Positions 3,233 to 30,294 of a DNA stretch of 64,000 nucleotides are shown in pieces. The stretch is taken from the NCBI RefSeq assembly GCF_020165855.1, contig NZ_JAIUFY010000015.1:1-64000 (forward strand), given 5' to 3'. The notes below the pieces were generated by a model. The model was given only the letters and a program-made list of their open reading frames with translations, was not told the DNA's origin and ran no database searches. Source of the DNA: Celeribacter litoreus. GTDB taxonomy: Bacteria; Pseudomonadota; Alphaproteobacteria; Rhodobacterales; Rhodobacteraceae. Position numbers and translations under genes: made by a program. Position 1 is the first letter of the stretch; the number at the start of each line of letters is the position of its first letter.

Positions 3233-4312
3233 GTGCCACGAACGTCCCAGACCGCTCCGTCAGGATCGGGAATTCAATCGAAGTTGAGTGAGCTGAAACA
3301 ACTGGAAAAACGAGAAGGTCCGGAGGCTGCCGAAGCCGCGCTGATTGCAGCGATCCGCGACTATCCGGACTCCCATCAGGCCTATTCCGCGCTGACACGG
3401 GTTTTGCTCAAGCAGAAGAAGATCGGCTATGCTGTGCGAGCTGCGGAGAAAGCGGCGTCTTTGGCGCCTCTGGAAGCAAAACTCCATACAATTCTCGGTG
3501 TCGCTCGGATGCGGAATGACGATCTTGAAGGAGCGTCTTCCGCGTTTGCACAGGCGCTCGAACTCGATAAGAATTTTGTTCAGGCAATCGTCGGGGCGGC
3601 GTCGGTTAAATTGGCGTCTGAAAACTATGACGATGCGATCGCACTGTGTGATCGTGCGCTTGATCTAGATCCTTCCATGCAGCGCGCACATGAGCTCGTC
3701 GCGCGCATCAACATGAAACAGGACAAGCCCGAGGAAGCAGGGGCCGAACTGCGCAAATTGCTCGAGCAGGACACGAGCCATGATCGCGCACTCCGCTCTT
3801 ACCTGCGTCTGATGAAGAAGGAAGGCAAACTGGATAACGTCGTGAGCCTCGCCGACGGGAGCCTCACGACGGACCCCGCGACGCCGCAGTCCGTCGCGCG
3901 TTACGCCCGCATGGTGACCTTCGCAGGGAAATCCGATCTCGCGGTCGACCAATACAAAAAGCTGGTTGAAAGCGGCTCTGCCCGTGAGGTCGACAAGATC
4001 CGCTTTGTCACAGTTCTGATCGGCGCTGGTGCACTTGACGAGGCACGTGACGTGATCGCGGGCTTGAAAGAACGCCGTGCGATGAAGCCGATCAAGGAAA
4101 AGCTCTCGGGCGATATCGAGCTGGCCTCCGGCAAGCCGGAAGAGGCGATTGCGCTCTACGCGGCGGCCTGTAAGGCGGCGCGCGTCGAAGGCTTTGAACC
4201 GGGGGACGATGCCCCCGCAACGCCGCAGGCTTTGGCTGAGGCATGGCAGTCCCACACGGCAAAAGCACTGAAAACGGCGCTCAAAGCCCACGCAAATAGC
4301 AAAGCCTCTTGA
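3233..4312 (+). CDS. TPR-repeat protein
   Basis: A 359-residue protein built of tandem tetratricopeptide repeats, seen as recurrent A-x-x-x-F/Y-x-x-A-L-x-L/x-P patterns (for example AFAQALELDKNF and ALCDRALDLDPSM). There are about seven repeats over residues 20-330 and no signal peptide, so it is probably a cytoplasmic scaffold. I chose GTG at 3233 because TTGGAGAAACCA precedes it; the in-frame ATG at 3176 lacks a ribosome-binding site. It is the first gene of the operon that continues with a sulfatase-fold protein and sulfotransferases. TPR modules are often coupled or fused to sulfotransferases, so a partner role is plausible but inferred. Confidence 0.8.
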   Translation: MPRTSQTAPSGSGIQSKLSELKQLEKREGPEAAEAALIAAIRDYPDSHQAYSALTRVLLKQKKIGYAVRAAEKAASLAPLEAKLHTILGVARMRNDDLEGASSAFAQALELDKNFVQAIVGAASVKLASENYDDAIALCDRALDLDPSMQRAHELVARINMKQDKPEEAGAELRKLLEQDTSHDRALRSYLRLMKKEGKLDNVVSLADGSLTTDPATPQSVARYARMVTFAGKSDLAVDQYKKLVESGSAREVDKIRFVTVLIGAGALDEARDVIAGLKERRAMKPIKEKLSGDIELASGKPEEAIALYAAACKAARVEGFEPGDDAPATPQALAEAWQSHTAKALKTALKAHANSKAS

Positions 4313-4350
4313 GGTCAACGAGCAGGAAAGGCTCCTTCGCGAGCCATTAA

Positions 4351-5202
4351 GTGAAAAAGACGATGCCCCGAAATTTTGTTTACATCATCATGGATAGCTG
4401 CCGCTTCGACAGCTATGCACGCGCCCGTACGTCGAACATGGACAAGATCGCAGAGGGTGAGCAGCGCTACAGCTACGCATCCTGGACGGCGCCAAGCCAC
4501 CACAGCATCTTTATGGGACAGGTCGCCCACAAAAGCCCGACCCGTATTCTTGCCTCAGAGGTCTACAAAAAAGAATTTGCGAAATGGGTGGACCGTCTTG
4601 ATGTTCCAGATCTGTCTTTCAAATCTTTCGTGCCAGAACTGAGCCTCGCGAAGGTTCTCGCAGGACATGGTTACAACACGACCGCGCGCGTCTCGATGCC
4701 GGTGCTGAACCCGTTTACCGGGATGAACCGGTATTGGGATAGTTATGAGCTCATGGCGGACCACAATGATTTTGCGGGGATGGTCGACAAGATCGAGTTT
4801 TCGATGTTCCAGCCGAGCTTCCACTTCATGAACCTCGGCGAAACGCACTATCCCTACATGCTCAAAGACGACAGTCTGCCGATCATTTCCGGCGTGCATG
4901 GTGTTGTTAAGGGCATGGATGCGGCGATTGCCCGGTCCGGCGAGAGCGTCACCGACGATGAAGAAGAGGACCAGTTCTTCTCTAAGGAAGATATGGTGTC
5001 GCTCCACGAGCAGCAGGTCCGCACCGTCGAATATGTTGACGAGGTTCTTGGTGCGTTGATGGAAAAGGCGCCCAAAGACACCCACTTCATCATTGCGGCG
5101 GACCACGGTGAATGCTTCGGTGAAGGCGACTACTTCGGCCACGGTCCGGTGATGCACGAGAAGGTGTTTGAAGTCCCATTCCTCGAGGGCCGCAAAGCAT
5201 GA
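4351..5202 (+). CDS. Small sulfatase/alkaline-phosphatase-fold protein
   Basis: A 283-residue member of the alkaline-phosphatase superfamily (sulfatase-like hydrolase/transferase). The N-terminal metal-binding segment is IIMDSCRFDS. The expected nucleophile region is ASWTAPSHHSIFMG, with Ser/Thr instead of the Cys-x-Pro-x-Arg of true formylglycine sulfatases. The second metal site is AADHGECFGEGDYFGHG near residue 255. It is shorter than typical sulfatases (over 400), lacking the usual C-terminal subdomain. The activity could be phospho- or sulfo-ester hydrolysis, or transfer. Start GTG 4351 is uncertain; ATG 4363 is an alternative. Its stop overlaps the next sulfotransferase gene by four bases, pointing to coupled translation. 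No membrane segments. Confidence 0.75.
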   Translation: MKKTMPRNFVYIIMDSCRFDSYARARTSNMDKIAEGEQRYSYASWTAPSHHSIFMGQVAHKSPTRILASEVYKKEFAKWVDRLDVPDLSFKSFVPELSLAKVLAGHGYNTTARVSMPVLNPFTGMNRYWDSYELMADHNDFAGMVDKIEFSMFQPSFHFMNLGETHYPYMLKDDSLPIISGVHGVVKGMDAAIARSGESVTDDEEEDQFFSKEDMVSLHEQQVRTVEYVDEVLGALMEKAPKDTHFIIAADHGECFGEGDYFGHGPVMHEKVFEVPFLEGRKA

Positions 5203-6137
5203 GCAAGGATAAAGGTTTTCCGGATCCGGTTTTCGTTCTTGCTGGACCGCGTTCCTACTCCTCTCTGGTTGTCGGCATGATCGGCCAGCACCCCGAGCTT
5301 TTTGGCTTGCCGGAACTCAACATTTTCCAGTGTGAGGACGCGGACGAATTCAACACCGGCGAGAACGCCGACGGGTCGAGCAAGTCTCCGTTCTGGAAGT
5401 CGATGCGTCACGGTCTTTTGCGGACGATCGCGCAGGTCTACAGCGGGGAGCAAACGCCCGAGTCCATTCGCATGGCGGAGCGCTGGCTGCGGACGCGTGA
5501 GACCCATACGTCAGCGCAGATTTTCCATGAGATTGCACGCGATGTCGCCCCGTTGCGCATCGTGGAAAAGAGTCCCGGTATCATCCGGAAGCAGGAATTT
5601 ATGCAGCGGATGTTGGAGGCCTGTCCGACGGCTCGCTTCATCCACCTCGTTCGGAGCCCGATCGATCAATGCAAATCGGCCTTGGCGGCGAAAGGCGGCG
5701 TTGGTGTTCTTCTCTCCATGAACTCCGTAGACCACCGCGGAGAGGAAGCCGCTCTCGAACCGCAAATCCTGTGGCATGATACGCAAATCCAGATTCTGCG
5801 CTTTTTGGATCAGCTCGATGATGAGCAATTCATCACCTTGCGTGGTGAAGATTTGCTGAGCGACACAGATGAGACACTCAAAGCTCTGTGCAACTGGCTC
5901 GGCGTGTCAGATGCGCCCGAGGCCATCGAGGCCATGAAACATCCTGAAGATAGCCCCTTTGCCTGCATGGGGCCGCCGAATGCGCCGCTCGGGAACGACG
6001 TTAACTTCCTCAACTCGCCAGCGCTCCGTCCAGGCAAGGTGAAATTCTCCTCGCTCGATGGGGATTTGCCGTGGCGTGCTGATGACGAAAAACTGCACCC
6101 GCGTGTCGTCGCGTTGGCAGAAGCTCTGGGATACTGA
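5199..6137 (+). CDS. Sulfotransferase 1 of three
   Basis: A 312-residue PAPS-dependent sulfotransferase. The 5'-phosphosulfate-binding loop is AGPRSYSSLVVGMIGQHP at about residues 13-30. The 3'-phosphate-binding segment is HLVRSPIDQCKS at about 147-158. It shares with the genes at 9064 and 9971 a C-terminal signature, P-E-x-SP(F/Y)-A-x-x-GP-x-x-AP-x-GN followed by a Phe, which marks the three as one subfamily. The acceptor is unknown; by context it may be the product of the polyketide/lipid synthase downstream. The ATGA overlap with the preceding sulfatase-fold gene suggests the two act together. Confidence 0.85.
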   Translation: MSKDKGFPDPVFVLAGPRSYSSLVVGMIGQHPELFGLPELNIFQCEDADEFNTGENADGSSKSPFWKSMRHGLLRTIAQVYSGEQTPESIRMAERWLRTRETHTSAQIFHEIARDVAPLRIVEKSPGIIRKQEFMQRMLEACPTARFIHLVRSPIDQCKSALAAKGGVGVLLSMNSVDHRGEEAALEPQILWHDTQIQILRFLDQLDDEQFITLRGEDLLSDTDETLKALCNWLGVSDAPEAIEAMKHPEDSPFACMGPPNAPLGNDVNFLNSPALRPGKVKFSSLDGDLPWRADDEKLHPRVVALAEALGY

Positions 6138-6141
6138 GATC

Positions 6142-6480: not shown

Positions 6481-6497
6481 GGAAGAGCGGACCTGAG

Positions 6498-7988
6498 ATG
6501 AAAGACCGCCGTGAAGAAATCAGCCACAGGGGCCTCGCACACAAAGACTTTTTCTGCGCTGCGAACAATGGCTTTGGAGACCAGCTGAATGCCTATCCGC
6601 ATTCGATGTATTGGTTCAAAGACAAACTTTATGTCGGAACGACGCGCTCCAACCTCTGCTTGTTCAAGGTTTCGAAAATCCAGAAGAAGCTCGGCCGCTG
6701 GCCCGTTCAGTGCCCGGAGTATGTCTATGATCAGGATATGCGGGCGCAGATTTGGTCCTTTGATCCGGCTGAGGCCGTAGAAGGTGAGCCGAATAGCGGC
6801 TGGAGCTTGCGGGCTCAGTCTCCTTGGATTGATGTGGACGGAGAAAAGCTCCCGCGTGAAGTGGGCTATCGCGGGATGTGTGTTTTCAAGGGGGAGTCCG
6901 ACGACGAGGAACACCTCTATGTCGCAACCTTTACCCCTGCGCGCGGCTTTGGGACACGCATCTACCGGACATCCGACGGCGACAATTACGAAGAAATTCC
7001 GATGCCGGACGGGTTTGATCGGTCGATCATCACCCTACGACTCATCGTTCCGCATAAGGGGTGGTTGTTCACCAGCCCCACGGGCAAAGCGGGTGGCGAG
7101 GTGAATACCTCGGGCAATGCGATCATCTACGGGACGAAAGATCCTGCGAAGGGCGAGTGGAAGGAAATCAACACACCTGGATTCGGAAGGGCCAAGAACA
7201 TCGGCATCTTCGAGATGATCGGGTGTGGTGATTACCTTTATGCTGGCACAGGCAATCCGGACGGCTACGAGATTTGGCGTACGAAGGTTGAGGGCGAGCC
7301 GCCTTTCAACTGGGAGTGCGTGGTCGAGAAGGGGGCCTATCGTGGCCCTCTTAATCAGGGTGTGGCCTCGTTCACGACGCTTAACGGGATCGTCTATGCC
7401 GGTGGTGGCATCCAGCACGGCGGGATTGACCGTGCCAATGGCCTCGGGCCTGCCGGTCCCGAATTGATCCGGATTCATGAAGATGGTTCGTGGGACTTGC
7501 TCGTTGGTACGGAACGCCAAACTCCGGTTGGCTATAAAAAGCCCCTGTCCGGATATTCGCCCGGCTTCGACAATCTCTTTAACGGATATTTTTGGCAGAT
7601 GGAGACCCACGAGGGGTGGATCTATGTTGGGACCTTCGATTGGACCGTGATGATCCGTTACTCCGAGGACGACAACTGGCCGATGCCGTTCCGCAAGATG
7701 ATTGAACGCTACGGGATGGAAAACCTGATTAAATTGCGCGCGGGCGCCGAGCTCTACAGGAGCCGCGACGGCGAAAATTGGCTGCCGGTGACGACCCAAG
7801 GGTTTGGGAACGAATTCAATTATGGTATCCGGACATTCCAATCCACGCCGATCGGGCTCGCTGTTGGCTTCGTGAACCCGTTTGGCCCAAAGGTCGGGAT
7901 GGATGTCGATGACGATTTTACGTACGTCCCGAACCCGAAAGGCGGCCTCGAAGTTTGGATCGGCAATCAGAAGGACGATACCGAATGA
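6498..7988 (+). CDS. Propeller-like protein of unknown function (A)
   Basis: A 496-residue soluble protein with repeated beta-rich blocks of the type LYVGT/LYAGT/IYVGT followed by D-G-x-x-W/Y (for example RTSDGDNYEEIP and SRDGENWLPV), consistent with a beta-propeller. No catalytic motif is recognised. The segment with GPELIRIHEDGSWDLLVG and TPVGYKKPLSG is matched in the protein encoded at 10855 (GPEVISLDHEGNWDL, TPNGYKAPLSG), so the two are related and probably share a job in this pathway. I chose ATG 6498; an upstream TTG at 6477 overlapping the previous gene is less likely. No signal peptide, so presumably cytoplasmic. The next gene overlaps its stop. Confidence 0.75.
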   Translation: MKDRREEISHRGLAHKDFFCAANNGFGDQLNAYPHSMYWFKDKLYVGTTRSNLCLFKVSKIQKKLGRWPVQCPEYVYDQDMRAQIWSFDPAEAVEGEPNSGWSLRAQSPWIDVDGEKLPREVGYRGMCVFKGESDDEEHLYVATFTPARGFGTRIYRTSDGDNYEEIPMPDGFDRSIITLRLIVPHKGWLFTSPTGKAGGEVNTSGNAIIYGTKDPAKGEWKEINTPGFGRAKNIGIFEMIGCGDYLYAGTGNPDGYEIWRTKVEGEPPFNWECVVEKGAYRGPLNQGVASFTTLNGIVYAGGGIQHGGIDRANGLGPAGPELIRIHEDGSWDLLVGTERQTPVGYKKPLSGYSPGFDNLFNGYFWQMETHEGWIYVGTFDWTVMIRYSEDDNWPMPFRKMIERYGMENLIKLRAGAELYRSRDGENWLPVTTQGFGNEFNYGIRTFQSTPIGLAVGFVNPFGPKVGMDVDDDFTYVPNPKGGLEVWIGNQKDDTE

Positions 7989-9007
7989 CGCATAAAGTGG
8001 TTCTGTGTCTGGCGCTTGCGGCCGCAACCTCGCTTCTGGCCTGTCAGCGCATGGAGCAGGTGGAACAGGTTGTGGCAAATCGAATGGGGCTCACCCCCAC
8101 GACGATTTCGTCACCAGAGCCGATGATGGTCACACCGGTTGCGGCGGGGGGCTATACTGCGGGTCGTTTGGAAACGAAAACGATGACGGTCGGCGGCTTG
8201 CAGCGCACCTACCATGTTTACGTCCCGAGATCGCTGCAATCCGGAACGCTTGCGCCAATCATCTACGCTTTCCACGGCGGGGGCGGAAACGCCGAACAAT
8301 TCGAGAGCCGCATGGACTGGCGCGGTGCAGCGGAGAAATATGGTGCGATCCTTGTTCTCCCTCAGGCCTATGGGCGGGGTGGAGATGACAACGGCAACTG
8401 GAATGCCGAAAGCACTATTCCGCTGGGGTTTGCTGAGAGAAACCACCTCGACGACCTCGGTTTCCTCCAGGCGATGTTTAGCGTGATGCAGGCAAATTAT
8501 CCTGTCGACAGATCGCGGACCTATCTCGCAGGTTTCTCCAACGGCGGGATGTTCTCCTATCGCGCGGCTTGTGAGTTGGGGGTTCAGAAAATCTCTGCGG
8601 TTGCCGTCGTCGCGACAACCATGTCCTTCTCATCATGTGCCAAACCGCAGGGCATCAGCCTTTTGCATATTCATGGCACGGATGACGAGAACATCCCTCT
8701 TGAAGGTGGTCGCGGAACGAATTCAGCGCGGCGCGCCAACTGGCCTGCAGTGGCGCGTGGCGTGGACGTGTTCAAGTCCGGCAATCAATGTTCGAGCGGT
8801 CAGCAGTTGGTAAGACCAGCGAGTGATACAAGTTGTTCAGTTTATAGTTGTGGCGGTAACGATGAAGTGGAACTTTGTATTGTTCAAAACGGAGGACACG
8901 CCTGGCCGGGCGGGGATCCCGCAAATTGGCAAATTAAAGAGAATATCTACGTGTCTCGGGCATTCAATGCGACAGATTACGTAGCCAAGTTTTTGCTGCA
9001 GCACTAA
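7985..9007 (+). CDS. Lipoprotein esterase, PHB-depolymerase/LpqC type
   Basis: A 340-residue alpha/beta-hydrolase of the extracellular PHB depolymerase/feruloyl esterase-like family. The N-terminus is a lipoprotein signal with lipobox LLAC (Cys at about residue 20), so the enzyme should be anchored in the periplasm or outer membrane. The nucleophile elbow is GFSNGG, the acid is in HIHGTDDENIP and the His in NGGHAWPGG. The ATG at 7985 overlaps the previous stop (ATGA). Placed among sulfotransferases, it could hydrolyse an ester of the exported lipid or polyketide rather than PHB. The last 200 bases are lower in GC than the rest. Confidence 0.82.
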   Translation: MTHKVVLCLALAAATSLLACQRMEQVEQVVANRMGLTPTTISSPEPMMVTPVAAGGYTAGRLETKTMTVGGLQRTYHVYVPRSLQSGTLAPIIYAFHGGGGNAEQFESRMDWRGAAEKYGAILVLPQAYGRGGDDNGNWNAESTIPLGFAERNHLDDLGFLQAMFSVMQANYPVDRSRTYLAGFSNGGMFSYRAACELGVQKISAVAVVATTMSFSSCAKPQGISLLHIHGTDDENIPLEGGRGTNSARRANWPAVARGVDVFKSGNQCSSGQQLVRPASDTSCSVYSCGGNDEVELCIVQNGGHAWPGGDPANWQIKENIYVSRAFNATDYVAKFLLQH

Positions 9008-9015
9008 TAAAGACT

Positions 9016-9040: not shown

Positions 9041-9063
9041 TCGGAATACAAAACGGAGTTCAA

Positions 9064-9945
9064 ATGAAGGACCGTAAACCGCTGATTATCCTGACGTGTA
9101 TGCGTTCCTATTCGTCTTTGGTTTCCAGTATGCTCGGACAGCACTCCGGGCTTTATACATTGCCTGAAATTAACCCGTTCGTAGAGACAACGCTCGGTCG
9201 CTTTGAGCGACGCGCAAATATGGTGCGCCCGCGGACCTTGGATGGCCTTTACCGCGCTGTTGCCGAGATCGAGTACGGCAATCAGACCGAAAAATCCGTG
9301 AAAAAGGCGATAGAATGGACGCGGGAGCGGGCCGGTTGGACCATCGTCGACGCAATGAATCATCTGGCAGATCAGGTCGCTCCCCGTCGTGTCATTGACA
9401 AAAGCCCGAGCACAGTTCTCTCGGATGACGCAATCAATCGGGCGATCACGACTTGCCCCGATGCATATTTTCTCCATCTGTATCGCCACCCCTGCGCGAC
9501 CACGAAGTCGATTGCAAAGATCACCAAATTCGGGAGCGCCGCGAGCACGGGCGGAAAGGATCCTGAGGATGCTTGGTATAGTTCGAACTTGCGCATCATG
9601 AAGGCAGCGAGCCGGATTCCGCAGGGGCAGTTTATGTCGCTCCGCGGGGAAGACGTGCTACGTGATCCGGACAATTATCTGACGCAAATCTGTACTTGGA
9701 TGGGGCTGGAGACGACGAAAGACGATCTCGCGGCAATGCGACATCCCGAGAAATCCCCGTATGCCTGTCTGGGGCCCCGGAGCGCTCCGTTCGGAAATGA
9801 CCCGAACTTCCTACGCAATCCGGCTTACTCCCAGCGTGAAATTCCTGAGCGCCCTCTGAGCGATCCGCTCGATTGGGATCGCGAAGACCGATACCTAAAT
9901 GCCGAAACCGTCGCCATTTCCCACCAATTGGGCTATGGTCCATGA
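9064..9945 (+). CDS. Sulfotransferase 2 of three
   Basis: A 293-residue PAPS-dependent sulfotransferase of the same subfamily as the flanking copies. The 5'-PSB loop is TCMRSYSSLVSSMLGQHSG near residue 10 and the 3'-PB segment is HLYRHPCATTKS near residue 139. The C-terminal signature HPEKSPYACLGPRSAPFGND is present. The start ATG is preceded by CGGAG. The second Arg-His pair in the 3'-PB segment differs from copy 1 (RSP), so acceptor preference may differ. It lies 56 bases after the esterase gene and 25 before copy 3, within one operon. Confidence 0.85.
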   Translation: MKDRKPLIILTCMRSYSSLVSSMLGQHSGLYTLPEINPFVETTLGRFERRANMVRPRTLDGLYRAVAEIEYGNQTEKSVKKAIEWTRERAGWTIVDAMNHLADQVAPRRVIDKSPSTVLSDDAINRAITTCPDAYFLHLYRHPCATTKSIAKITKFGSAASTGGKDPEDAWYSSNLRIMKAASRIPQGQFMSLRGEDVLRDPDNYLTQICTWMGLETTKDDLAAMRHPEKSPYACLGPRSAPFGNDPNFLRNPAYSQREIPERPLSDPLDWDREDRYLNAETVAISHQLGYGP

Positions 9946-9970: not shown

Positions 9971-10858
9971 ATGCCTGAACCTCTTTTTATCCTCTGCCCT
10001 GGTCGATCATTTTCCTCTGTGCTGTCGGCCGTGATCGGTCAGCATCCTGATGCTTTCGGGTTGCCGGAGGTTCACCTCTTTGTCACACCCACGGTCGGCG
10101 AGTTTCTCGATATGGACGCGCCCTTGCTCGGGCGACGTGGCGCGACGACCGGTCTGCGCAGAGCCGTGGCCGAATTGGTGTTCAAAAAGCAGACGAAAGA
10201 GACCGTCGACCAGGCGCGTGACTGGTTGATGGAGCGGCGTGAGAAAACGGGTGCCGAGGTGTTTCGGGAGCTTTGCGAAATTGCAGGCAACCGCGTGATG
10301 GTGGACAAAAGCCCGACAAATTCCGAAGAGAGCCGTCTGGAAGAGGTTTACCGCGCGTTTCCGAACGCAAAGTATCTCCATTTGTCTCGCCACCCGCGTG
10401 CGACCTGTCGCTCCCAATACAAAGCCTACGCGGGGCGGTCCAAATACAGTCAGCGCGCGAAAAAATTCGATCACGAGGTTTATTGGTACGAACGCCATCA
10501 CAGCATTCTGAACTTCAGTCAGCGGCTGAACCCGGATCAGTATATGTTCCTGCATGGGGAGTGGTTCTTCGAACATCCGGAGACGTTCCTTGAGCAGATT
10601 TGCGAGTGGTTGGGGCTTTCTACGGACAAGAAGGCCATCAGGATGATGATGAAACCGGAGGAGTCACCATTTGCGGTGATGGGACCGGAAAATGCGCCTT
10701 ACGGCAACAACGTCGGCTTTATTGAAAAACCGCATTTGCGGGTCGGCCGACCGAAGCAAGAAACCCTGGAGGGGCCTTTGGAGTGGGTGACGGATCACGA
10801 AACCTACTTTACCGAACAAACCCGCTCTCTGGCGTATCAACTGGGATATGACACATGA
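9971..10858 (+). CDS. Sulfotransferase 3 of three
   Basis: A 295-residue sulfotransferase. The 5'-PSB loop is CPGRSFSSVLSAVIGQHPD near residue 8 and the 3'-PB segment is HLSRHPRATCRS near residue 138. The C-terminal signature KPEESPFAVMGPENAPYGNN is present. It is closest in motif order to copy 2 and probably arose by tandem duplication. The stop overlaps the following gene by four bases. Three diverged copies in one operon suggest sulfation at several positions or on several acceptors; the acceptors cannot be read from sequence. Confidence 0.85.
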   Translation: MPEPLFILCPGRSFSSVLSAVIGQHPDAFGLPEVHLFVTPTVGEFLDMDAPLLGRRGATTGLRRAVAELVFKKQTKETVDQARDWLMERREKTGAEVFRELCEIAGNRVMVDKSPTNSEESRLEEVYRAFPNAKYLHLSRHPRATCRSQYKAYAGRSKYSQRAKKFDHEVYWYERHHSILNFSQRLNPDQYMFLHGEWFFEHPETFLEQICEWLGLSTDKKAIRMMMKPEESPFAVMGPENAPYGNNVGFIEKPHLRVGRPKQETLEGPLEWVTDHETYFTEQTRSLAYQLGYDT

Positions 10859-12138
10859 AATCGATGCTCACCTTGGACAGTATTTTGCCCGAAGTCACTC
10901 GGCGACCTAAAAGACGGCGTCGCGCTCTCGATGCAATGGCGGATGAGCAACTCGCACCGGCGCAGCCGTCTGAGCCGGTCAAGGAAGAGGCCCCTGCGCC
11001 CAAAGCGGTCGCGGCCAAGCCGGAGGCAGCCGAAGATATCATTTCGCTCGTTGTCGATCTTTTCGCAGATGAGGAGAGCGTGCTGGCAGATGTGCGGCGC
11101 CTCGACGTCTCGACCGGTGACCGGAAAGCGGAGCTTGTCCGGTTCCGCCTTGATGGCGCACAGAGCTTTGCTCTTCCACTTGGACCGTCTCTGGATGCTG
11201 GTGAGCGTCGCGTTGTTGAGGCGATGAGTGACAGCGACGCAGCGAAGCTCATGCTCGTCTCCGGTAATGCGATCTCGCTTAAGAACGGGTACAAAAAGCT
11301 TGCAGAGGCCATCACGGCACTGTCGCCCGCGCGGGGCACTATGTTTGCCGCATCGGACACCCTCGCCGCGATCTATGCGCCCGGCAATCCGGCCATCCAT
11401 GTTTTGCGCGTCAAAAGCTCGGGTTCTGTGCGAACTTTGACGCTTGAGGACCTGAAGCTCGGCGGATGGCGGAGCATTTCCTGCATCCAAGTCGTAGAGA
11501 GCATGCTCTATGTCGCCGTGACGGATCCTGTTGGCGGTTTTGATCTCTTTGTATGTGATCTGAAAAAGAAAACGCTCAAATTCGAGCCCGTGATTGTCCG
11601 CGGCGGCCATCGTTTCGCCAGCAACGCCATGATCACCACGATGGTGCCTACAGAAACGGGACTGATCCTCGGGACGGCAGCATTGGCCAGCCCGGCTGAA
11701 CGCGTGGGCAACTGGGGGCCTGAGGTTATCTCGCTCGATCATGAAGGAAACTGGGATCTGTCCTTCGGTGTCGCGCGCTTTACGCCGAACGGCTACAAGG
11801 CGCCGTTGTCTGGTGAGACTGCCGGGGTGGGCGAGCTGGAGAACGCCGCAGTGCAAGCGATCGCGCATGATGGCACCAATACGATCGTCGCGATCCAGAG
11901 CTTTATCGGCCTGCCGGAAGAAGATCGTCGCGATGTCGTGAGTGACCTGCTCGATTATGGCGGGGCTGTGCGTCTCTATGTGACGAAAGATATGAAGTCC
12001 TGGCGTCAGATTTCAGTGACTTTGCCCGACGACTTCGGGCCGATTACATCGCTGTGCATGACGAAGGAAGGTGCCTTCCTCGGATACGAAAGCATCGTCG
12101 CAGACAAGGTGCCGTTGCATTTTGTGCCGATCGCGTAA
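10855..12138 (+). CDS. Propeller-like protein of unknown function (B)
   Basis: A 427-residue protein with an N-terminal Ala/Pro/Glu-rich linker (residues 20-60) and a beta-rich C-terminal part. Residues about 280-330 match protein A of this operon: GPEVISLDHEGNWDL and TPNGYKAPLSG against the corresponding segment there. Short DMKSWRQI-type blades also occur. No catalytic residues are recognised and no signal peptide is seen. ATGA overlap with sulfotransferase 3 and the terminator 27 bases after its stop make it the last gene of the operon. Function unknown; a binding or scaffold role for the shared substrate is a guess. Confidence 0.75.
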   Translation: MKSMLTLDSILPEVTRRPKRRRRALDAMADEQLAPAQPSEPVKEEAPAPKAVAAKPEAAEDIISLVVDLFADEESVLADVRRLDVSTGDRKAELVRFRLDGAQSFALPLGPSLDAGERRVVEAMSDSDAAKLMLVSGNAISLKNGYKKLAEAITALSPARGTMFAASDTLAAIYAPGNPAIHVLRVKSSGSVRTLTLEDLKLGGWRSISCIQVVESMLYVAVTDPVGGFDLFVCDLKKKTLKFEPVIVRGGHRFASNAMITTMVPTETGLILGTAALASPAERVGNWGPEVISLDHEGNWDLSFGVARFTPNGYKAPLSGETAGVGELENAAVQAIAHDGTNTIVAIQSFIGLPEEDRRDVVSDLLDYGGAVRLYVTKDMKSWRQISVTLPDDFGPITSLCMTKEGAFLGYESIVADKVPLHFVPIA

Positions 12139-23566: not shown

Positions 23567-26500
23567 GCAACTATTCAGGCGACATCGCCATTGTAGGTAT
23601 GGCGGGCATCTATCCGGATGCGGAAGACATTGATGCGTTCTGGGGGAATATTCTTGCCAAACATGATGCAGTGACAGAGGCGCCGGCCGAATGGCTGGGC
23701 GCATCGGACCTGTATGATCCGACCTCCGATGAACTCATGGCCATCTATACGAAAAAAGGTGGTTTCCTCGGCGATCTGTCTCGGTTCAACTCTGCTGAGT
23801 TCGGGACGATGCCACGCTCTGTCATCGGTGCGCAGCCGGACCAGTTTATGGCCCTGCGCATTTGTAGTGATGCGTTGATTGATGCCGGCTATAAGGCGGG
23901 GCAAACCGATCACACGCGCACGGGTGTGATCCTCGGGCATGCGGTGCACGCACACCGGTCGAACACGAACGGAATTCAGCAGGCCTGGTTCAACAGTCAG
24001 CTGCGTTACTACCTTCAGGCGCTGTTCCCGGATGCGGACGAGGCGACGATCAAACTTGCCTCGGATAAAGTTCAGCAGAAGCTGCCGGTTATTGAGGCGG
24101 AGTCTATTCCCGGACTTGTGCCGAATATCATGACCGGGCGGGTGGCCAACCGTCTCGATCTGATGGGGCCGAACTATATCATTGATGCAGCCTGTTCCTC
24201 GTCCTTGATCACGGTCGAACTCGCGGCGAACGAACTTCGCGCCGGAAATGCCGACATGATGATCGCCGGTGGTGTGAACACCACCACATCGCCGCTCGTG
24301 TATTCCGTGTTCTGTAGCGTTGAGGCTCTGTCTCCGACCGGCAAGATCCGCCCGTTCTCGAATGAGGCCAACGGCACGATTTTGGGTGAAGGCGCCGGTG
24401 CAGTGGTACTCAAACGGCTCGAGGATGCTCTGGCGGCCGATGACCGGATTTATGCCGTTGTGAAAGCGGTCGGTCAGTCCTCAGACGGTAAAAGCTCCGG
24501 TCTGATGGCACCCCGCTTTGAAGGCGAAGTGCTCGCGATGCGTCGGGCCTATGAGCAGTGCGGACTTGATCCGCGGAGCGTGGGACTTGTCGAAGCGCAC
24601 GGCACAGGTATTCCGCTCGGGGATCGGACGGAGATTTCCGCTCTGCGCGAAATTTTCGGCACCCGCGATGGCGACATTCCGAGCATTCCGATTGGGTCTG
24701 TGAAGTCCATGATCGGCCACTGTATTCCTGCTGCGGGGTCTGCCGCGATCATCAAGAATGCGCTCGCGCTGACCAATCGCGTTATTCCGCCGACTCTCTG
24801 CGATGAGGTGAATGAAGACCTCGGGATTGCCGACACGCCGTTCTACGTCTCCACAGAAGCCCGTCCATGGGTCCACTCGGCGAAGACACCGCGCCGTGCC
24901 GCGATCAATGCATTCGGTTTTGGTGGCATCAATGCCCATATCGTCCTCGAGGAGTCTCCGGTCGGCCGGGAGATGGATGCAACCGCGACGTTTATGCCGC
25001 GTGCAGCGTCTGCGAAGCCAGCGGAACAGATTTTCGTTCTTGGTGCGGATTCGCCTGATGTCATGGCACAAGCGGTTTCCGGACTGCGCGATGCGGCGGA
25101 AGGGCTCGAAGAAGAGGCTTTTGCAGAGCTTGCTCGGAACAGTTGGAGTGTGGTTGGTGCGGCGCCCGCACGTCTGGCGGTTGTCGCGACCGATCCGGCA
25201 GACCTCGCAAAGAAGTTGGCGGCGGCAGAGAAACACCTCGCGAAAGACGCGACAAAGTCGCTCCAGACGCGCAACGGCCTCTATTATGAGCCGAGCCCGA
25301 TTGAGGGCAAAACCGCGTTCCTGTTCCCGGGCGAAATGGCGCAGTATCCGGATATGATGGCGGACGCCGTGATGACCTTCCCGCAGATGCGGGCGTGGTT
25401 CGATCAAATCTCAAGCCTGTTTGATGGTGAGCGAGATCTGCGGTTGCAGGATGTCATTTTCCCGCCGACCTCTGGTCTCACCGAAGAAGGGGCGAGCAAG
25501 CTCGAAGCGCGGATGCATAGCGTCGATTTCGGCTCCGAAATGGTGTTTGCTGCGGATCAGGCGATCTTTGGAATGTTGCAGGCGCTTGGGGTGCAGCCGG
25601 ATGGGCTGCTCGGACATTCGACTGGCGAGAACGCTGCGATTGTGGCGAGCGGCTGGTTCGGTATGGACAGCGAGCAGGTCGGTGACACGATCAAGAAAAT
25701 GAACGGCGTCTTCAACAGTGTGAACTCGTCCGGCGAGATTCCGGAAGGGCAGTTGCTGACCATTGCTGGGCTCGACCGCGAGGCGTTCACAGCAGCTTTT
25801 GAAAAGCAAAGTGGCCTGCACTTTACGATGGACAACTGCCCGAACCAGGCGATTGTCTTCGGTCCGGCCGACACCATCGACGCGCTGCAGAAAGACGTGG
25901 TTGAGCAGGGCGCGGTTTGTACGAAACTCCCGATTTCCTGGGGCTATCACACCGAATACGTTGCCCCGATGGCGAAAGGCTTTGGGGAACTGTTCTCTGA
26001 TCTTGAGATGAACCCGACGTCGCTCGAGCTATGGTCTTGCGCGACTGCGAAGCCGTTCGCGAAAAATCGTGAGGAATTCCTCGAAACGGCAATCGCCCAG
26101 TATGTGAGCCGCGTGGCTTTCCGCGAGGCGATTGAGAATATGCATGCGGCAGGCTACACGCGCTTTGTCGAATGTGGGCCGAACGCGACATTGACCGCGT
26201 TTGTGCGGGACATCCTGCCGAAGGAACGCATTCTCGCTGTGTCCGCCGACAACCGTCGGCGTGGGATGGTGTCGCAACTTCGCCACCTCGTTGCGCAAAT
26301 GTTCACTGCTGGGGGCGATCTCGGGTATCCGGAGCGCCTCGATCACAAATCTGACGCCGCAGAAGAGGCGCGCCAAGAGCTGCGCGCGAAGCGCCGCAAG
26401 GCGATGCCGCTCCCGTCGAACCTGCCGTTCCCGGAACTCGATGAGGCCGAGAAGACAGAATTGCGCGCACTGCTAGGTGCCGGTCAGGTCGCGTCTGCGC

Positions 26501-27339
26501 CATCTGCTCCAGTGACGATTGTGCAGCAGGCTCACAACGGCGATGCTGCTGTCGGTCAGCACTTGTCTATGATGAATTCCTTCCTCTCGGGGCAGGAACG
26601 TGTCGCCCATGAGGCGTTGGGCGCGCGCAAGGCACAGATCCGTGTTCTTGATATCTCGGATCAGTTTGCACTTCCGATGGCCTATCGTGGGATCCTGATG
26701 GAAGGTCTGCCGACGCCGCGCGGAATGGCAAACCATCTTCATCCGGCGGAGCAGGAAACTGCGAGCTATATGGCTGGTGAGGATGCGAGTTCGGACCGCT
26801 GGGCCCATTGGAGCCTCGGCCGTCTCGCCGTCAAACGCGCCGCACGGGACTATCTCGGTCTTGTGGGGGAAACGGCGTCTGATCGCGAGATTTGCATCGT
26901 AAAATCCGACCTCGGTGCACCGAAAGTCTTGCTCCCCGAAAGGGGCCTTGAGTTGCCCGGCACTACCATTGCCCATGCGGGCGGCATGGCCATTGGTGCC
27001 GTCGCGGCACCGCCCTATCGCATTGGCATCGACTATGATTTTCCGGAGCGCATCCGCGATGCAGAGAGCCTATTGGCGTCGATCCTATCTCCGCGCGAGC
27101 GTGAGGTCGTGCCGGTTGTCGCGAATGCGTGGAGTGCCACGCTCTATTGGACGATCAAGGAAGCCGCCGCGAAAACTTTGGGCACCGGGCTTCAAGGACG
27201 CCCAGAAACCTTCGAAATCGTGGAATTCGACCAGCATGCTGCAACTGCGAAGGTTGAATATCAGGGTCAAAAGGTTGATACCCAATCCCGTCAGATGGGC
27301 GCAGGTATCTGCACCATCGGCTACTGTGTGTCTCATTGA
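23563..27339 (+). CDS. KS-AT-phosphopantetheinyl transferase fusion
   Basis: A 1258-residue protein. KS spans about 5-460 with an intact triad: Cys in DAACSSS, His in EAHGTG and in IGHCIPAAG, so it is not a chain-length factor lacking Cys. AT spans about 584-900 with the elbow GHSTGE. Residues about 1025-1258 are a Sfp-type 4'-phosphopantetheinyl transferase: IAHAGG, GIDYD (Mg-binding acid) and WTIKEAAAKTLG. There is no ACP inside; it must work with the ACP of the preceding synthase and the free ACP that follows. Start GTG 23563 overlaps the previous stop and follows GGTGGCGGAG. In the Pfa systems PPTase is a separate gene (PfaE), so its fusion here is notable. It gives the cluster its own carrier-activating activity. 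Confidence 0.9.
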   Translation: MSNYSGDIAIVGMAGIYPDAEDIDAFWGNILAKHDAVTEAPAEWLGASDLYDPTSDELMAIYTKKGGFLGDLSRFNSAEFGTMPRSVIGAQPDQFMALRICSDALIDAGYKAGQTDHTRTGVILGHAVHAHRSNTNGIQQAWFNSQLRYYLQALFPDADEATIKLASDKVQQKLPVIEAESIPGLVPNIMTGRVANRLDLMGPNYIIDAACSSSLITVELAANELRAGNADMMIAGGVNTTTSPLVYSVFCSVEALSPTGKIRPFSNEANGTILGEGAGAVVLKRLEDALAADDRIYAVVKAVGQSSDGKSSGLMAPRFEGEVLAMRRAYEQCGLDPRSVGLVEAHGTGIPLGDRTEISALREIFGTRDGDIPSIPIGSVKSMIGHCIPAAGSAAIIKNALALTNRVIPPTLCDEVNEDLGIADTPFYVSTEARPWVHSAKTPRRAAINAFGFGGINAHIVLEESPVGREMDATATFMPRAASAKPAEQIFVLGADSPDVMAQAVSGLRDAAEGLEEEAFAELARNSWSVVGAAPARLAVVATDPADLAKKLAAAEKHLAKDATKSLQTRNGLYYEPSPIEGKTAFLFPGEMAQYPDMMADAVMTFPQMRAWFDQISSLFDGERDLRLQDVIFPPTSGLTEEGASKLEARMHSVDFGSEMVFAADQAIFGMLQALGVQPDGLLGHSTGENAAIVASGWFGMDSEQVGDTIKKMNGVFNSVNSSGEIPEGQLLTIAGLDREAFTAAFEKQSGLHFTMDNCPNQAIVFGPADTIDALQKDVVEQGAVCTKLPISWGYHTEYVAPMAKGFGELFSDLEMNPTSLELWSCATAKPFAKNREEFLETAIAQYVSRVAFREAIENMHAAGYTRFVECGPNATLTAFVRDILPKERILAVSADNRRRGMVSQLRHLVAQMFTAGGDLGYPERLDHKSDAAEEARQELRAKRRKAMPLPSNLPFPELDEAEKTELRALLGAGQVASAPSAPVTIVQQAHNGDAAVGQHLSMMNSFLSGQERVAHEALGARKAQIRVLDISDQFALPMAYRGILMEGLPTPRGMANHLHPAEQETASYMAGEDASSDRWAHWSLGRLAVKRAARDYLGLVGETASDREICIVKSDLGAPKVLLPERGLELPGTTIAHAGGMAIGAVAAPPYRIGIDYDFPERIRDAESLLASILSPREREVVPVVANAWSATLYWTIKEAAAKTLGTGLQGRPETFEIVEFDQHAATAKVEYQGQKVDTQSRQMGAGICTIGYCVSH

Positions 27340-27419
27340 CGGGCGAGGGGAGGCCCGTGACGTGACCACGAAATGTTAAAGAGGGCGCGAGCCCGTGCCT
27401 ATTACGTGCGAGAAAGAAA

Positions 27420-27698
27420 ATGAGTAAGGACACAGTCGATCAAACGGTCGTATCCACCCTGGAAGACTTCATCCAAGACTGGGGGCTGGATGCTGAGATC
27501 ACGCCAGAAACGACCATCGTGGCAGATTTGGAGTTCGACTCCATCGACGTGATCCAGTTCACCGTCGCGCTGGAGAGCGCCTTCGGGAACAAGAAACTCG
27601 GCTTTCAGGATCTGCTGATGCAGGAAGGTCGCTACGTGGACGACCTGTCCGTGGGTCAGTTCCAGACCTTCGTCGCGACACGTCTCGCAGCAGCCTAA
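27420..27698 (+). CDS. Free acyl carrier protein
   Basis: A 92-residue acidic acyl carrier protein. The phosphopantetheine attachment site is in LEFDSIDVIQF (Ser near residue 41), between the helices expected for the ACP fold. It lies 80 bases after the KS-AT-PPTase gene, whose C-terminal domain is the obvious enzyme for its activation. A short hairpin (ACGGGC/GCCCGT, 27339-27358) occupies the gap. The probable role is to hold a starter or finished chain that is passed between the two synthase proteins or to the downstream hydrolases; this is inference. Confidence 0.9.
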   Translation: MSKDTVDQTVVSTLEDFIQDWGLDAEITPETTIVADLEFDSIDVIQFTVALESAFGNKKLGFQDLLMQEGRYVDDLSVGQFQTFVATRLAAA

Positions 27699-27722
27699 TT
27701 TATACGTCCGGGAGGGCCAAAA

Positions 27723-29333
27723 ATGAGCAAAACACTTCTCGTTGGACTTGATGGTGCGACCTTTACGGTTCTGAAACCATTTATCGAGGGGACCTGCGAA
27801 GAGGGCGTCGTGATGCCGTTTCTCGCAGCTCTGGTCAAAGAGGGCTATTCGGCCACTTTGAAATCGACGGCTCACCCGCTGACCCCGCCGGCATGGACCT
27901 CGGTCGTGACGGGGCGCACGCCGGGCAATCACGGTATCTATGACTTCGTACGTTTTGAGGACATGGGGAACGAGATGTTCTTCACCCTTTATGACTCGCG
28001 CGATATCCGGACCGAGACCCTCTGGCAGGTCGCAGGCCGCGAAAACAAGTCCGTTGTGTCGCTGAACTTCCCGATGATGGCGCCGCCGGTTGAAATCCCC
28101 GGTTCGCTGGTTCCGGGGTTCGTGTCCTGGAAGCACCTGCGCCGTAACACCTATCCCTCCGAGCTCTATGATCGCATTGCGAAGATCGACGGGTTCGACC
28201 CGAAGGAATTGAGCTGGGACTTCGAACGTGAAAGCCAGATCGGCGAGATTATGCCCGATGACGAGCTCTACGAATGGGTGAAGAACCACCTGCCGCGCGA
28301 TGACCAGTGGTTCAACATCGCTGAGACGCTCATGAAAGAGGATCAGCCGGATCTTCTCGCGGTGATGCTCGACGGAACTGATAAAATCCAGCACCAAGCC
28401 TGGCACCTTCTGGATCCGGAAGAGTGGAAGGGCGAACAGCCGGAATCTCGCAAAAAATGCCGCGAAATCGTCGTGGAATACTTCCGGCGCGTCGATGGCT
28501 ATCTTCAGGCGCTCTATACGGCGGCGGGACCGGGTAGCCACATGGTCATCGTGTCAGACCACGGTTTTACAGGCTCCATCAAGCTCGTGCGCATCAACAA
28601 ATATCTCGAAGAAAAAGGCTACCTCAAGTATCGTCCGAGCGACGGGTCCGAGGCCGCAAAACGCCGCGATATGGCGAACTTCGCGAACCTCGACTGGAAC
28701 GAGACCAAGGCATTCTGTCCGACACCGTCTTCTAACGGCGTTGTGATCCGCATGAAGAGCGAGAAGAACCCGAACGGCGTTGAACCGGCAGAATACGAAA
28801 GCTTCCGCGCCCAGTTGATCGAAGATCTTCTTGCGATGACGGATCCGGAGACGGGCGAGCACGTGATCACCAACGTGATGACACGAGAGGATGCCTTCCC
28901 CGGTCCGGCGATGGAAAACGCACCGGACCTGACCGTCGTCCTCTGTGACCATGGCTTTGTCTCTGTTCGTGACCGGTCCCCGCGTGTTGTGTCGCGGCCT
29001 GTGCCGTTCGGCACGCACCACCCGGATGGCGTCTTTATCATGACGGGGCCGGGCGTGAGCCGCGGTAAAAAAGGTGCGGATATGTCGATCGTCGACACGA
29101 CCTCGGTTGTTGCACACGCGATGGGGATGCATGTTCCGGTGGAGTTCGAAGGCAAAGTGCCGGCTGACCTCTATACCGAAGCCTGGTTCGATACGCACCC
29201 GGTTGAAATCTCCGGTCACACGGATGCATCTGCGGCACCGATGGCACAATTGGACAAAGACGAAGACATCAGTGATGAACAGCGCGCGGAAATGTTGGCC
29301 CAGTTGCGTGCGCTCGGATATATCGAAGACTGA
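27723..29333 (+). CDS. Type I phosphodiesterase-like (alkaline-phosphatase superfamily) protein
   Basis: A 536-residue member of the type I phosphodiesterase/nucleotide pyrophosphatase branch of the alkaline-phosphatase superfamily. The first metal ligand is in LVGLDGATF, the nucleophile Thr in PPAWTSVVTGRTPGNHG, further ligands in DGTDKIQHQAWH and VSDHGFTGS, and a late His in FGTHHPDG. No signal peptide or membrane segment, so cytoplasmic. It follows the ACP gene by 24 bases with GGGAGG before its ATG. It could cleave or transfer a phospho- or sulfo-linked head group on the synthase product. Substrate unknown. Confidence 0.83.
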   Translation: MSKTLLVGLDGATFTVLKPFIEGTCEEGVVMPFLAALVKEGYSATLKSTAHPLTPPAWTSVVTGRTPGNHGIYDFVRFEDMGNEMFFTLYDSRDIRTETLWQVAGRENKSVVSLNFPMMAPPVEIPGSLVPGFVSWKHLRRNTYPSELYDRIAKIDGFDPKELSWDFERESQIGEIMPDDELYEWVKNHLPRDDQWFNIAETLMKEDQPDLLAVMLDGTDKIQHQAWHLLDPEEWKGEQPESRKKCREIVVEYFRRVDGYLQALYTAAGPGSHMVIVSDHGFTGSIKLVRINKYLEEKGYLKYRPSDGSEAAKRRDMANFANLDWNETKAFCPTPSSNGVVIRMKSEKNPNGVEPAEYESFRAQLIEDLLAMTDPETGEHVITNVMTREDAFPGPAMENAPDLTVVLCDHGFVSVRDRSPRVVSRPVPFGTHHPDGVFIMTGPGVSRGKKGADMSIVDTTSVVAHAMGMHVPVEFEGKVPADLYTEAWFDTHPVEISGHTDASAAPMAQLDKDEDISDEQRAEMLAQLRALGYIED

Positions 29334-29336
29334 TCC

Positions 29337-29357
29337 GGTGCGCAGTTTGTGCGCACC
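29337..29357 (+). other. Intercistronic hairpin
   Basis: An 8-bp stem, GGTGCGCA (29337-29344) and TGCGCACC (29350-29357), with a 5-base loop follows the phosphodiesterase-like stop. No T run is present, so it probably tunes mRNA stability within the operon rather than ending it. Confidence 0.4.
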
Positions 29358-29379
29358 CCGTCCAAAGTAGAGGCAGGCG

Positions 29380-30294
29380 ATGCCACGCATCACGGTCAAT
29401 GATGTCTCCCTGAATGTCACGCTGCTCCCGCAAAGCGGGCGTGGCGAGAACGGGGTGCCGATGATCTTCGTGCATGGCCTCGCAGCGTCTCAAGCATTTT
29501 GGTACATGGCGGGCGCGCCTCTGCTGGCGCGTCTCGGTCCTGCGACGCTCTATGATTTGCGCGGGCACGGGAAAAGCGCAATGCCGGAGCACGGGTTTGG
29601 CGTTACGTCGATGACGCGTGATCTTTTGGGTCTCATGGATCAGCTCGAAATCCCGCAGGCCAATATCGTTGCGCACAGCTACGGTGGGATGATCGCGCTT
29701 CTTGCAGCTCTGCGACATCCGGAGCGCGTCAAAAGCCTCTTGCTTGCGGACGTCCGTGTGAGACCGCTCCAACAAACACTCGAATTTCCTGCGCGGAACG
29801 TGCCTCCGAAACTCGCGAAACGGCTCGCGGAGATTGGTATCAACCTCCAAGCGATTGAGCGGCAGGATGACGGGATCGATTACCTCAAAACGGTCGCGAA
29901 TATTCAGCTGCATGCGGGTGAAGAAGCAGATGAATTGCTACGGGAACTCTATAGCCATCCGCAATTGTTCCGCACGCGCCGCAATGCGGAAAAGTGGATT
30001 GCGCTGACGGAACGTGCGTCGTTCATCGACGACATGCGCCATGGGACGAGTTTCAAAGCCGAGGATCTCACCGCCCTCAAGCAGCCGATCCTCGCAATCA
30101 CAGGGGCTAATTCGACCACGGGGCCGTCTGCGCAAGCGCTCAAACGCTATTGTCCGCAGGCGATCGTGAAGGAATTGCCTGGCGTCGGTCATTTTTTCCC
30201 GATGTCTCACCCCAAGCTATTCCTGCGGCCTGCCGCACGTTTCCTGCGTGCGGTGAATAGCGGCCGTTTGTCCGCGGAACAGCTTGCGGAATGA
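29380..30294 (+). CDS. Alpha/beta hydrolase, possible product-release thioesterase
   Basis: A 304-residue alpha/beta-hydrolase-1 protein. The oxyanion-hole segment is FVHGLAAS, the nucleophile elbow AHSYGGM (Ser near residue 104), and the catalytic His lies in GVGHFFPMSHP near residue 270. The start ATG follows AGAGGCAGGCG. It is the last gene of the synthase operon; 22 bases separate it from a convergent gene. As the two synthase proteins have no thioesterase domain, this enzyme may release the chain, but epoxide hydrolase or esterase activity cannot be excluded by sequence alone. Confidence 0.8.
   Translation: MPRITVNDVSLNVTLLPQSGRGENGVPMIFVHGLAASQAFWYMAGAPLLARLGPATLYDLRGHGKSAMPEHGFGVTSMTRDLLGLMDQLEIPQANIVAHSYGGMIALLAALRHPERVKSLLLADVRVRPLQQTLEFPARNVPPKLAKRLAEIGINLQAIERQDDGIDYLKTVANIQLHAGEEADELLRELYSHPQLFRTRRNAEKWIALTERASFIDDMRHGTSFKAEDLTALKQPILAITGANSTTGPSAQALKRYCPQAIVKELPGVGHFFPMSHPKLFLRPAARFLRAVNSGRLSAEQLAE

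What the first reader, a model, noticed from the sequence alone, without database searches (positions are those of the whole stretch)
3233..30294. Undescribed sulfated secondary-lipid/polyketide system
A complete PUFA/hgl-type synthase set (two synthases, own PPTase, free ACP), two alkaline-phosphatase-fold enzymes, two esterases, three sulfotransferases, two related propeller-like proteins and an adaptor-type membrane fusion lie together. Gene overlaps (ATGA/GTGA) show coupling. I know of no characterised pathway with this set. The chemical logic suggests a long acyl or polyketide chain that is sulfated and moved across the membrane.
Basis: partly seen in the sequence, partly recalled or inferred. 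Interest (0 to 1): 0.85.

Follow-up and report, generated by a model that had tools for sequence, protein, structure and literature searches.

The report
Widespread sulfated secondary-lipid assembly and export pathway
This bacterial gene set looks like an uncharacterised assembly line that builds a long lipid chain, decorates it with sulfate and sends it out of the cell, and because close to the same set travels together in very different bacteria it probably makes a real but still unknown natural product.

Summary
Propeller orf503 marks a module seen in 7 phyla. In 149 genomes of the order, orf503 and this synthase occur in the same three genomes only. Of 51 well-covered orf503 loci, the synthase is verified in 50, nearby or elsewhere in the genome. 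Of 20 genomes without a nearby sulfotransferase, 17 encode the same family elsewhere. Twenty sampled windows of the same genome held no module gene. New here: in 8 genomes the ACP is fused to a CurM/olefin-synthase-type sulfotransferase. These 8 lack the phosphodiesterase-fold gene AP2, and 21 AP2 genomes lack the fusion, so AP2 probably acts on the ACP-bound chain. Best reading: a Pfa-like secondary-lipid pathway whose product is modified on an ACP, sulfated and exported through a HlyD/TolC-type conduit. The synthase class was catalogued in 2011 with unknown products; my eight paper searches found no description of the whole system. Product, order of steps and the propellers' role are inferred.

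The parts
3233..4312 (+). TPR protein (tpr); local part of the operon, matched in 8 of 80 relative loci
   Evidence: Pfam TPR
4351..5202 (+). AP1: alkaline-phosphatase-superfamily enzyme (PF00884) with Thr46 at the nucleophile position, not the Cys/Ser of a formylglycine sulfatase; found only in loci that also hold a sulfotransferase (20 of 20)
5199..6137 (+). ST1: Sulfotransfer_3 sulfotransferase, ATGA-coupled to AP1
6498..7988 (+). orf503: cytoplasmic-looking beta-propeller, marker protein of the module
7985..9007 (+). EST1: PHA-depolymerase-like esterase with lipoprotein-type signal (LLAC) and conserved Ser195/Asp244/His315; ATGA-coupled to orf503
   Evidence: lipobox read by eye
9064..9945 (+). 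ST2: Sulfotransfer_3 sulfotransferase
9971..10858 (+). ST3: Sulfotransfer_3 sulfotransferase; best PDB relatives are the olefin synthase and CurM sulfotransferase domains
10855..12138 (+). orf427: diverged relative of orf503, ATGA-coupled to ST3
12225..14669 (-). HlyD-type periplasmic adaptor fused to an N-terminal multi-helix membrane domain; no HExxH in any of 50 family members
14840..15322 (+). orf160: small protein found in 5 of 81 loci incl. the window
15419..23566 (+). PKS1: NMO/FabK-like ER, KS, AT, ACP, KR, DH; passes the NCBIfam PfaA cut-off (1046.5 vs 1010.1)
23563..27339 (+). PKS2: KS, AT, PPTase; GTGA-coupled to PKS1
27420..27698 (+). free ACP; in 8 relatives its homologue is fused to a CurM/olefin-synthase-type sulfotransferase
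27723..29333 (+). AP2: NPP/phosphodiesterase-type AP-superfamily enzyme with Asp10, Thr54, Asp220, His224, Asp279, His280, His432 conserved; mutually exclusive with the ACP-sulfotransferase fusion in the genomes tested
29380..30294 (+). ABH: alpha/beta hydrolase with Ser100 and His271 conserved; directly upstream of the propeller gene in relatives and fused to it in some Pseudomonas

Best explanation
A horizontally spread secondary-lipid pathway. PKS1 (KS-AT-ACP-KR-DH plus a FabK-like ER) and PKS2 (KS-AT), primed by the PKS2 PPTase, iteratively build a long, wholly or partly reduced acyl chain. The chain is moved to the free ACP. There AP2, or in a variant lineage a CurM/olefin-synthase-type sulfotransferase fused to that ACP, modifies a hydroxyl of the bound chain, most likely the 3-OH, and ABH releases it. 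One or more stand-alone sulfotransferases (three here) sulfate hydroxyls. The cytosolic propeller orf503 works next to ABH as scaffold, substrate chaperone or isomerase. The HlyD adaptor with its own membrane domain, together with a TolC-type outer-membrane protein, exports the product, and the lipoprotein esterase EST1 finishes or attaches it outside. Shown here: the gene content, its co-inheritance, conserved catalytic residues, the ACP-sulfotransferase fusions and the AP2/fusion exclusivity. Inferred: chain length, site of sulfation, order of steps, AP2's reaction, role of the propellers, direction and endpoint of export.
For: Module: of 80 loci found by orf503 (best 80 of 129), 48 hold a synthase, 48 AP2, 48 a sulfotransferase, 53 ABH, 49 HlyD, 43 the ACP. 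Unbiased clustering finds no other family in more than 11 of 81 loci. Of the 51 loci with at least 9 kb on both sides, 38 hold a synthase and 32 a sulfotransferase, and each holds one or both. 16 of 16 tested genomes encode the synthase at E<=1e-225, including 11 of the 13 of those loci without it nearby; a twelfth (L071 = G014) has it. Order set: orf503 and the synthase in the same 3 of 149, next synthase match 282 bits against 792 or more. 17 of 20 tested genomes without a nearby sulfotransferase encode it (E 1e-86 to 1e-143), HlyD matched in 20 of 20. Co-variation of distances r 0.72-0.86 between orf503 and seven synthase, tailoring and export families, 0.73 for AP1. Chemistry: stand-alone STs are nearest in the PDB to the OLS and CurM sulfotransferases (E 1.5e-14 to 3e-21 for the best), while two other sulfotransferases of the same genome are nearest to other enzymes. 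ACP-ST fusions in 7 loci plus one genome, fused ST at E 2e-59 to 4GOX. AP2 orthologue absent in 8 of 8 fusion genomes; fusion-type ST absent in 21 of 21 AP2 genomes. In L061 the order is PKS2, ACP-ST, ABH, propeller where others have PKS2, ACP, AP2, ABH, propeller. Export: adaptor resembles MacA/EmrA; OEP genes in 14 loci.
Against: No product is known. Two class-level genomes have related synthases (34-36%) without orf503, so the synthase family is wider than the module. 3 of 20 tested genomes lacked a sulfotransferase match, and 12 further loci without one were not followed. Co-variation partly reflects shared phylogeny. Loci were picked by orf503, so counts are conditional on it. No inner-membrane pump is conserved in the operon. 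Several genomes are incomplete MAGs. ABH is nearest to ordinary esterases.
Confidence: 0.62

Rival explanations
1. Olefin-synthase-like hydrocarbon pathway: sulfate (or, with AP2, a phosphoryl group) only activates the 3-OH; ABH acts as the decarboxylating thioesterase, sulfate is eliminated and a terminal alkene or polyene is the product, so the end product is not sulfated.
For: ACP-ST fusions of true CurM/OLS type (E 2e-59), and in L061 the gene order ACP-ST then ABH mirrors the ACP-ST-TE order of CurM (the CurM order is recalled). The OLS mechanism is stated in PMC3903477 (passages).
Against: In the window the STs are stand-alone and of a more distant type. CurM TE does not appear among the 60 shown of 285 matches of ABH nor among the 23 of L061 ABH at E<=1e-9. 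Fusion genomes still keep a separate stand-alone ST, which an olefin step alone does not need. No FAAL domain was found in PKS1 or PKS2 at E<=0.001.
Confidence: 0.2
2. Sulfated glycolipid or surface polysaccharide: the synthase makes a lipid anchor and the STs sulfate a sugar rather than the acyl chain.
For: Glycosyltransferase gt2 adjoins the cluster and glycosyltransferase genes lie at 36-48 kb of the window.
Against: gt2 and that region are not part of the conserved set; glycosyltransferase is not among the families in more than 11 loci; ACP-ST fusion argues for an ACP-bound substrate.
Confidence: 0.1
3. The heterocyst-glycolipid (hgl) or EPA/DHA (pfa) pathway in unfamiliar dress.
For: PKS1 passes the PfaA model cut-off.
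Against: Cyanobacterial genomes hold HetI-linked synthase genes at 33-35% besides the window type at 45-46%. One ACP in PKS1, no FNxSH-type PPTase motif, and extra STs, APs and propellers.
Confidence: 0.05

Closest known systems
Secondary-lipid (Pfa-like) synthases, Shulse and Allen 2011 (PMC3098273), most likely the group of Types M-T and perhaps Type O
   Same: Multidomain KS-AT-ACP-KR-DH-ER synthase pair with own PPTase; P1a-like GAP and P1b'-like motif (VSLSH in most members, TTIAH in the window, read by eye); scattered over phyla. Type O was listed for Dinoroseobacter, Parvularcula and Gloeobacter, whose kin (Roseobacteraceae, Parvularculaceae, a Gloeobacter-like cyanobacterium) carry this module.
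   Different: The parts of the paper seen (abstract, sections 6-8, passages) mention no sulfotransferase, phosphodiesterase or hydrolase partner (for the last two). The Type O sequences themselves were not available, so identity is not tested.
CurM and olefin synthase (OLS) ACP-ST-TE chain termination
   Same: PAPS-type sulfotransferase family; in 8 relatives an ACP fused to a CurM/OLS-type ST, followed in L061 by an alpha/beta hydrolase.
   Different: In the window the ACP is free, AP2 takes that place in the operon, STs are separate and multiple, and ABH is not CurM-TE-like by sequence.
swf cluster of sponge symbionts (PMC3908369, abstract and passages seen)
   Same: Mono-modular iterative PKS/FAS with a sulfotransferase; alkyl sulfate product suggested, none detected.
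   Different: KS-AT-DH-ER-KR-ACP in one protein, ST fused to a thioester reductase, radical SAM partner; no AP, propeller or HlyD genes are named in the passages seen.
Heterocyst glycolipid island (hgl)
   Same: Pfa-like synthase making a long chain; HlyD-type exporter part in HGL export (recalled).
   Different: Separate locus in the same cyanobacteria.

Membership tests
Pfa-like secondary-lipid synthase | KS, AT, ACP, KR plus DH, ER and PPTase in the synthase genes | tested here: met
   Pfam and NCBIfam, PKS1 over the PfaA cut-off
Pfa-like secondary-lipid synthase | tandem ACP domains (usual, not obligatory according to PMC3098273) | tested here: not met
   one ACP stretch in PKS1 and one free ACP
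Pfa-like secondary-lipid synthase | PPTase P1a x(G/D)xP and P1b or P1b' motifs | tested here: met
   LGAP in the window; P1b' type VSLSH or close in most of 27 PKS2 rows, window TTIAH with Ser to Thr; no FNxSH (motifs from PMC3098273 section 8)
Type O of Shulse and Allen | KS in the Type O clade | not testable with these tools
   Type O sequences not identifiable; kin of Type O hosts carry the module
Heterocyst glycolipid (hgl) synthase | HetI-linked hgl island | tested here: not met
   HetI 15-17 kb from 33-35% matches, window-type synthase on other contigs or about 0.4 Mb away in heterocystous genomes
Olefin synthase / CurM | ACP-ST fusion with CurM-type ST | tested here: not met
   not in the window; met in 8 relatives
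Olefin synthase / CurM | decarboxylating TE | tested here: inconclusive
   ABH nearest to esterases; CurM TE not among shown matches
Olefin synthase | FAAL loading domain | tested here: not met
   not among Pfam domains of PKS1 or PKS2
Type I sulfatase (formylglycine) | Cys or Ser at the nucleophile position | tested here: not met
   Thr46 in AP1 (17 of 17), Thr54 in AP2 (40 of 40)
NPP-type two-metal phosphodiesterase (AP2) | Asp/Thr nucleophile/Asp/His/Asp/His/His ligand set | tested here: met
   D10, T54, D220, H224, D279, H280, H432 each 100% in 40 sequences; ligand roles recalled
Tripartite exporter | periplasmic adaptor plus outer-membrane channel plus pump | tested here: inconclusive
   adaptor met; OEP partner in 14 of 80 relative loci, not in the conserved set of the window; no pump family conserved

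The most novel reading that the evidence does not exclude
An AP-superfamily phosphodiesterase-type enzyme (AP2) and an ACP-fused CurM/olefin-synthase-type sulfotransferase are interchangeable solutions to one step on an ACP-bound polyketide-lipid chain, i.e. AP2 is a previously unrecognised phosphoryl- or sulfuryl-transferring chain-tailoring or chain-terminating enzyme, in a pathway found in at least seven phyla that exports an unknown sulfated secondary lipid with the help of a new beta-propeller family.
Probability: 0.3. Interest if true: 0.87.

Novelty: new variant of a known kind. Interest (0 to 1): 0.72.

Why it matters
Pfa-like synthases with unknown products are a long-standing gap. 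This work ties one such synthase to a defined partner set across 7 phyla, including anammox bacteria, Nitrospira, Pseudomonas, Rhodobacterales and cyanobacteria. The natural ACP-sulfotransferase fusions and the AP2 swap make specific, testable chemistry out of a list of annotations. Alkyl sulfates can be missed by standard lipid work-up (argued in PMC3908369), so a widespread sulfated lipid could have escaped notice.

Tried and rejected
Foldseek of orf503 against the PDB and against viral models gave only generic propellers, best TM-score by query length 0.46 (PDB) and 0.47 (viral), so no function was read from it. ABH was tested as a CurM-like thioesterase: not supported. Membership in the hgl pathway: rejected. 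The HlyD membrane domain matched a daptide HExxH metalloprotease model, but no HExxH was found in 50 family members, so an active protease is rejected. AP1 and AP2 as formylglycine sulfatases: rejected. The long propeller frames in several high-GC loci were judged upstream frame extensions by eye; only L049 (ABH fusion) and L090 (methyltransferase-like extension) were examined by Pfam. Eight paper searches found no description of this gene set; the library holds open-licence papers only.

Control added after the first check of this report: two other sulfotransferases of the same genome have other best PDB relatives; one of them reaches CurM only at E 3.5e-4.
Full report
Observation. The window lies in a 3.66-Mb genome whose family (f1) also holds G014; G014's contig has the same length and coordinates as Frigidibacter albus contig NZ_JAAAUC010000008.1, so the family is that of Frigidibacter. 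The nearest named orf503 is from a Roseovarius MAG (about 80%). PKS1 reads NMO/ER (400-655), KS (688-1077), AT (1244-1572), ACP (1781-1826), KR (2116-2337), DH (2415-2688); PKS2 reads KS, AT, PPTase. The four 4-base gene overlaps are real. A 112-aa gene at 6142-6480 was missed.

Catalytic state. In aligned relatives the residues expected at the active sites are conserved: AP1 Thr46 and Asp251/His252 (17 sequences), AP2 D10, T54, D220, H224, D279, H280, H432 (40), ABH S100 and H271 (32), EST S195, D244, H315 (33), ACP S41 (29). The set looks functional. AP1 and AP2 have Thr where formylglycine sulfatases have Cys or Ser. The roles of these residues are from general knowledge.

Co-occurrence in close relatives. 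In a sample of 149 genomes of the order, orf503 is found in 3 (own, G074, G014) and the PKS2-type synthase at 792 bits or more in the same 3, the next best match being 282 bits. G074 keeps the whole cluster (35-83% identity). G014 has the set rearranged within about 31 kb with two propellers and two STs; no tpr or orf160 match was found there. In a class sample of 289, orf503 occurs only in the window's own genome, and two other genomes have 34-36% synthases without it.

Wide survey. One scan with orf503 found 129 relatives; the best 80 loci were kept. They lie in Pseudomonadota, Cyanobacteriota, Planctomycetota (Brocadia, Scalindua), Nitrospirota, Thermodesulfobacteriota, Myxococcota and Verrucomicrobiota. 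Clustering all frames without the window's labels gave, of 81 loci with the window: HlyD 49, AP2 49, PKS2 46, ST 45, ABH 40, ACP 38, PKS1 37, EST 27, AP1 19; no further family in more than 11. The usual order is PKS1, PKS2, ACP, AP2, ABH, propeller, HlyD. ABH lies directly upstream of the propeller in 25 cases and is fused to it in Pseudomonas (L049 by Pfam; four more Pseudomonas loci have the same 860-codon frame). Among 51 loci with 9 kb or more on both sides, 38 hold a synthase and 32 an ST; 19 hold both, 19 synthase only, 13 ST only.

Missing partners. 16 genomes chosen because the locus held no synthase, or only an incomplete or weak match, all encode it (E 2e-225 or better, 41-54%); they include 11 of the 13 ST-only loci, a twelfth is G014, and L070 was not tested. 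So the synthase is verified for 50 of 51. Of the 32 loci without a nearby ST, 20 genomes were searched: 17 encode the same ST family (E 1e-86 to 1e-143), 3 do not; HlyD matches (E<=1e-20, some only moderate) were found in 20 of 20.

Controls. Twenty 20-kb stretches of the own genome gave no cluster-protein match; only the neighbouring gt2 query matched once. They were taken at regular steps from three contigs, not drawn at random. Distance matrices of orf503 and its partners correlate (r 0.72 to 0.86 for seven families, AP1 0.73; 999 permutations each, p 0.001), but shared ancestry contributes. The orf503 tree mixes phyla: at least 2 changes forced for Cyanobacteriota and 2 for Planctomycetota, Nitrospira beside Brocadia. 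This suggests transfer but does not prove it.

Sulfotransferases. ST3, ST1 and a relative are nearest in the PDB to the olefin synthase (4GOX) and CurM (4GBM) sulfotransferases. Two other sulfotransferases of the same genome are nearest to other enzymes, so this is not only because the PDB holds few of them. In seven loci (L032, L036, L038, L061, L067, L068, L096) and in the genome of L044 (L117), an ACP homologous to the window's free ACP is fused to an ST; the L096 one matches 4GOX and 4GBM at E 2e-59 and 6e-59. By the OLS mechanism (PMC3903477, passages) such STs sulfate the 3-hydroxyl of an ACP-bound chain.

The AP2 swap. AP2 was not found in any of the 7 fusion loci, while 48 of the 73 other loci have it. 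Genome-wide, no AP2 orthologue exists in the 8 fusion genomes (one distant match of 125 bits in L061's), against 585-613 bits in 3 controls. The fused-type ST is absent (80 bits or less) from 22 other genomes, 21 of them with AP2 in the locus. By my arithmetic a perfect split of 29 genomes into 8 and 21 has p about 2e-7 if independent, but four of the 8 are Neptuniibacter; about five lineages remain. In L061 the fusion sits in the place of ACP and AP2; in Neptuniibacter it lies a few genes downstream. Fusion genomes keep a stand-alone ST too, so the swap concerns a separate step. I read AP2 as acting on the ACP-bound chain; its donor and reaction are unknown.

Export and outside steps. The HlyD protein has an N-terminal helical membrane domain and a MacA/EmrA-like adaptor. 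OEP-type outer-membrane proteins adjoin it in 14 loci (families f11 in 9, f25 in 5; Pfam on one representative each). No pump is conserved; the fused membrane domain may stand in for one (inference). EST1 has a lipoprotein-type N terminus in the window and L018, and signal-like N termini in some others (by eye). TauD-like dioxygenases (8 loci) and a BD-FAE esterase (11 loci) are optional.

Known or new. Shulse and Allen 2011 (PMC3098273: abstract, sections 6-8 and passages) catalogued 20 types of Pfa-like synthases, 14 with unknown products; the PPTase motifs place this synthase in their M-T group, and the hosts of their Type O have kin carrying this module. Eight searches of open-licence papers found no account of the whole set. 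I therefore call it a new variant of a known kind.

Noticed in passing
window 6142-6480: Small gene (112 aa) between ST1 and orf503, conserved in Rhodobacterales relatives; other lineages have an unrelated-looking small protein (f16) between ST and esterase.
   Followed up: partly
L096:17870-19180, L032, L036, L038, L061, L067, L068, L117: Natural fusion of the free ACP with a CurM/olefin-synthase-type sulfotransferase.
   Followed up: yes
L090:9935-12352: Propeller homologue (Scalindua) with a C-terminal methyltransferase-like extension.
   Followed up: no
window 12225-14669: HlyD adaptor fused to a membrane domain that resembles a daptide metalloprotease model but lacks HExxH.
   Followed up: partly
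window 15419-16378: N-terminal 320 residues of PKS1 look like a second, degenerate NMO/TIM-barrel (NMO E 0.08 only).
   Followed up: no
G175 and G329 (class sample): Related KS-AT synthases (34-36%) in genomes without orf503, so the synthase family is wider than the module.
   Followed up: no
window 31711-48439: G3P dehydrogenase, sucrose-phosphatase-like, glycosyltransferase, epimerase and a second, larger sulfatase-family gene (42040-44412); not part of the conserved set.
   Followed up: no
window 244-2874: Lysylphosphatidylglycerol-synthase-like gene (PF09924) upstream; no match in the G074 or G014 stretches or in the 80 loci.
   Followed up: partly
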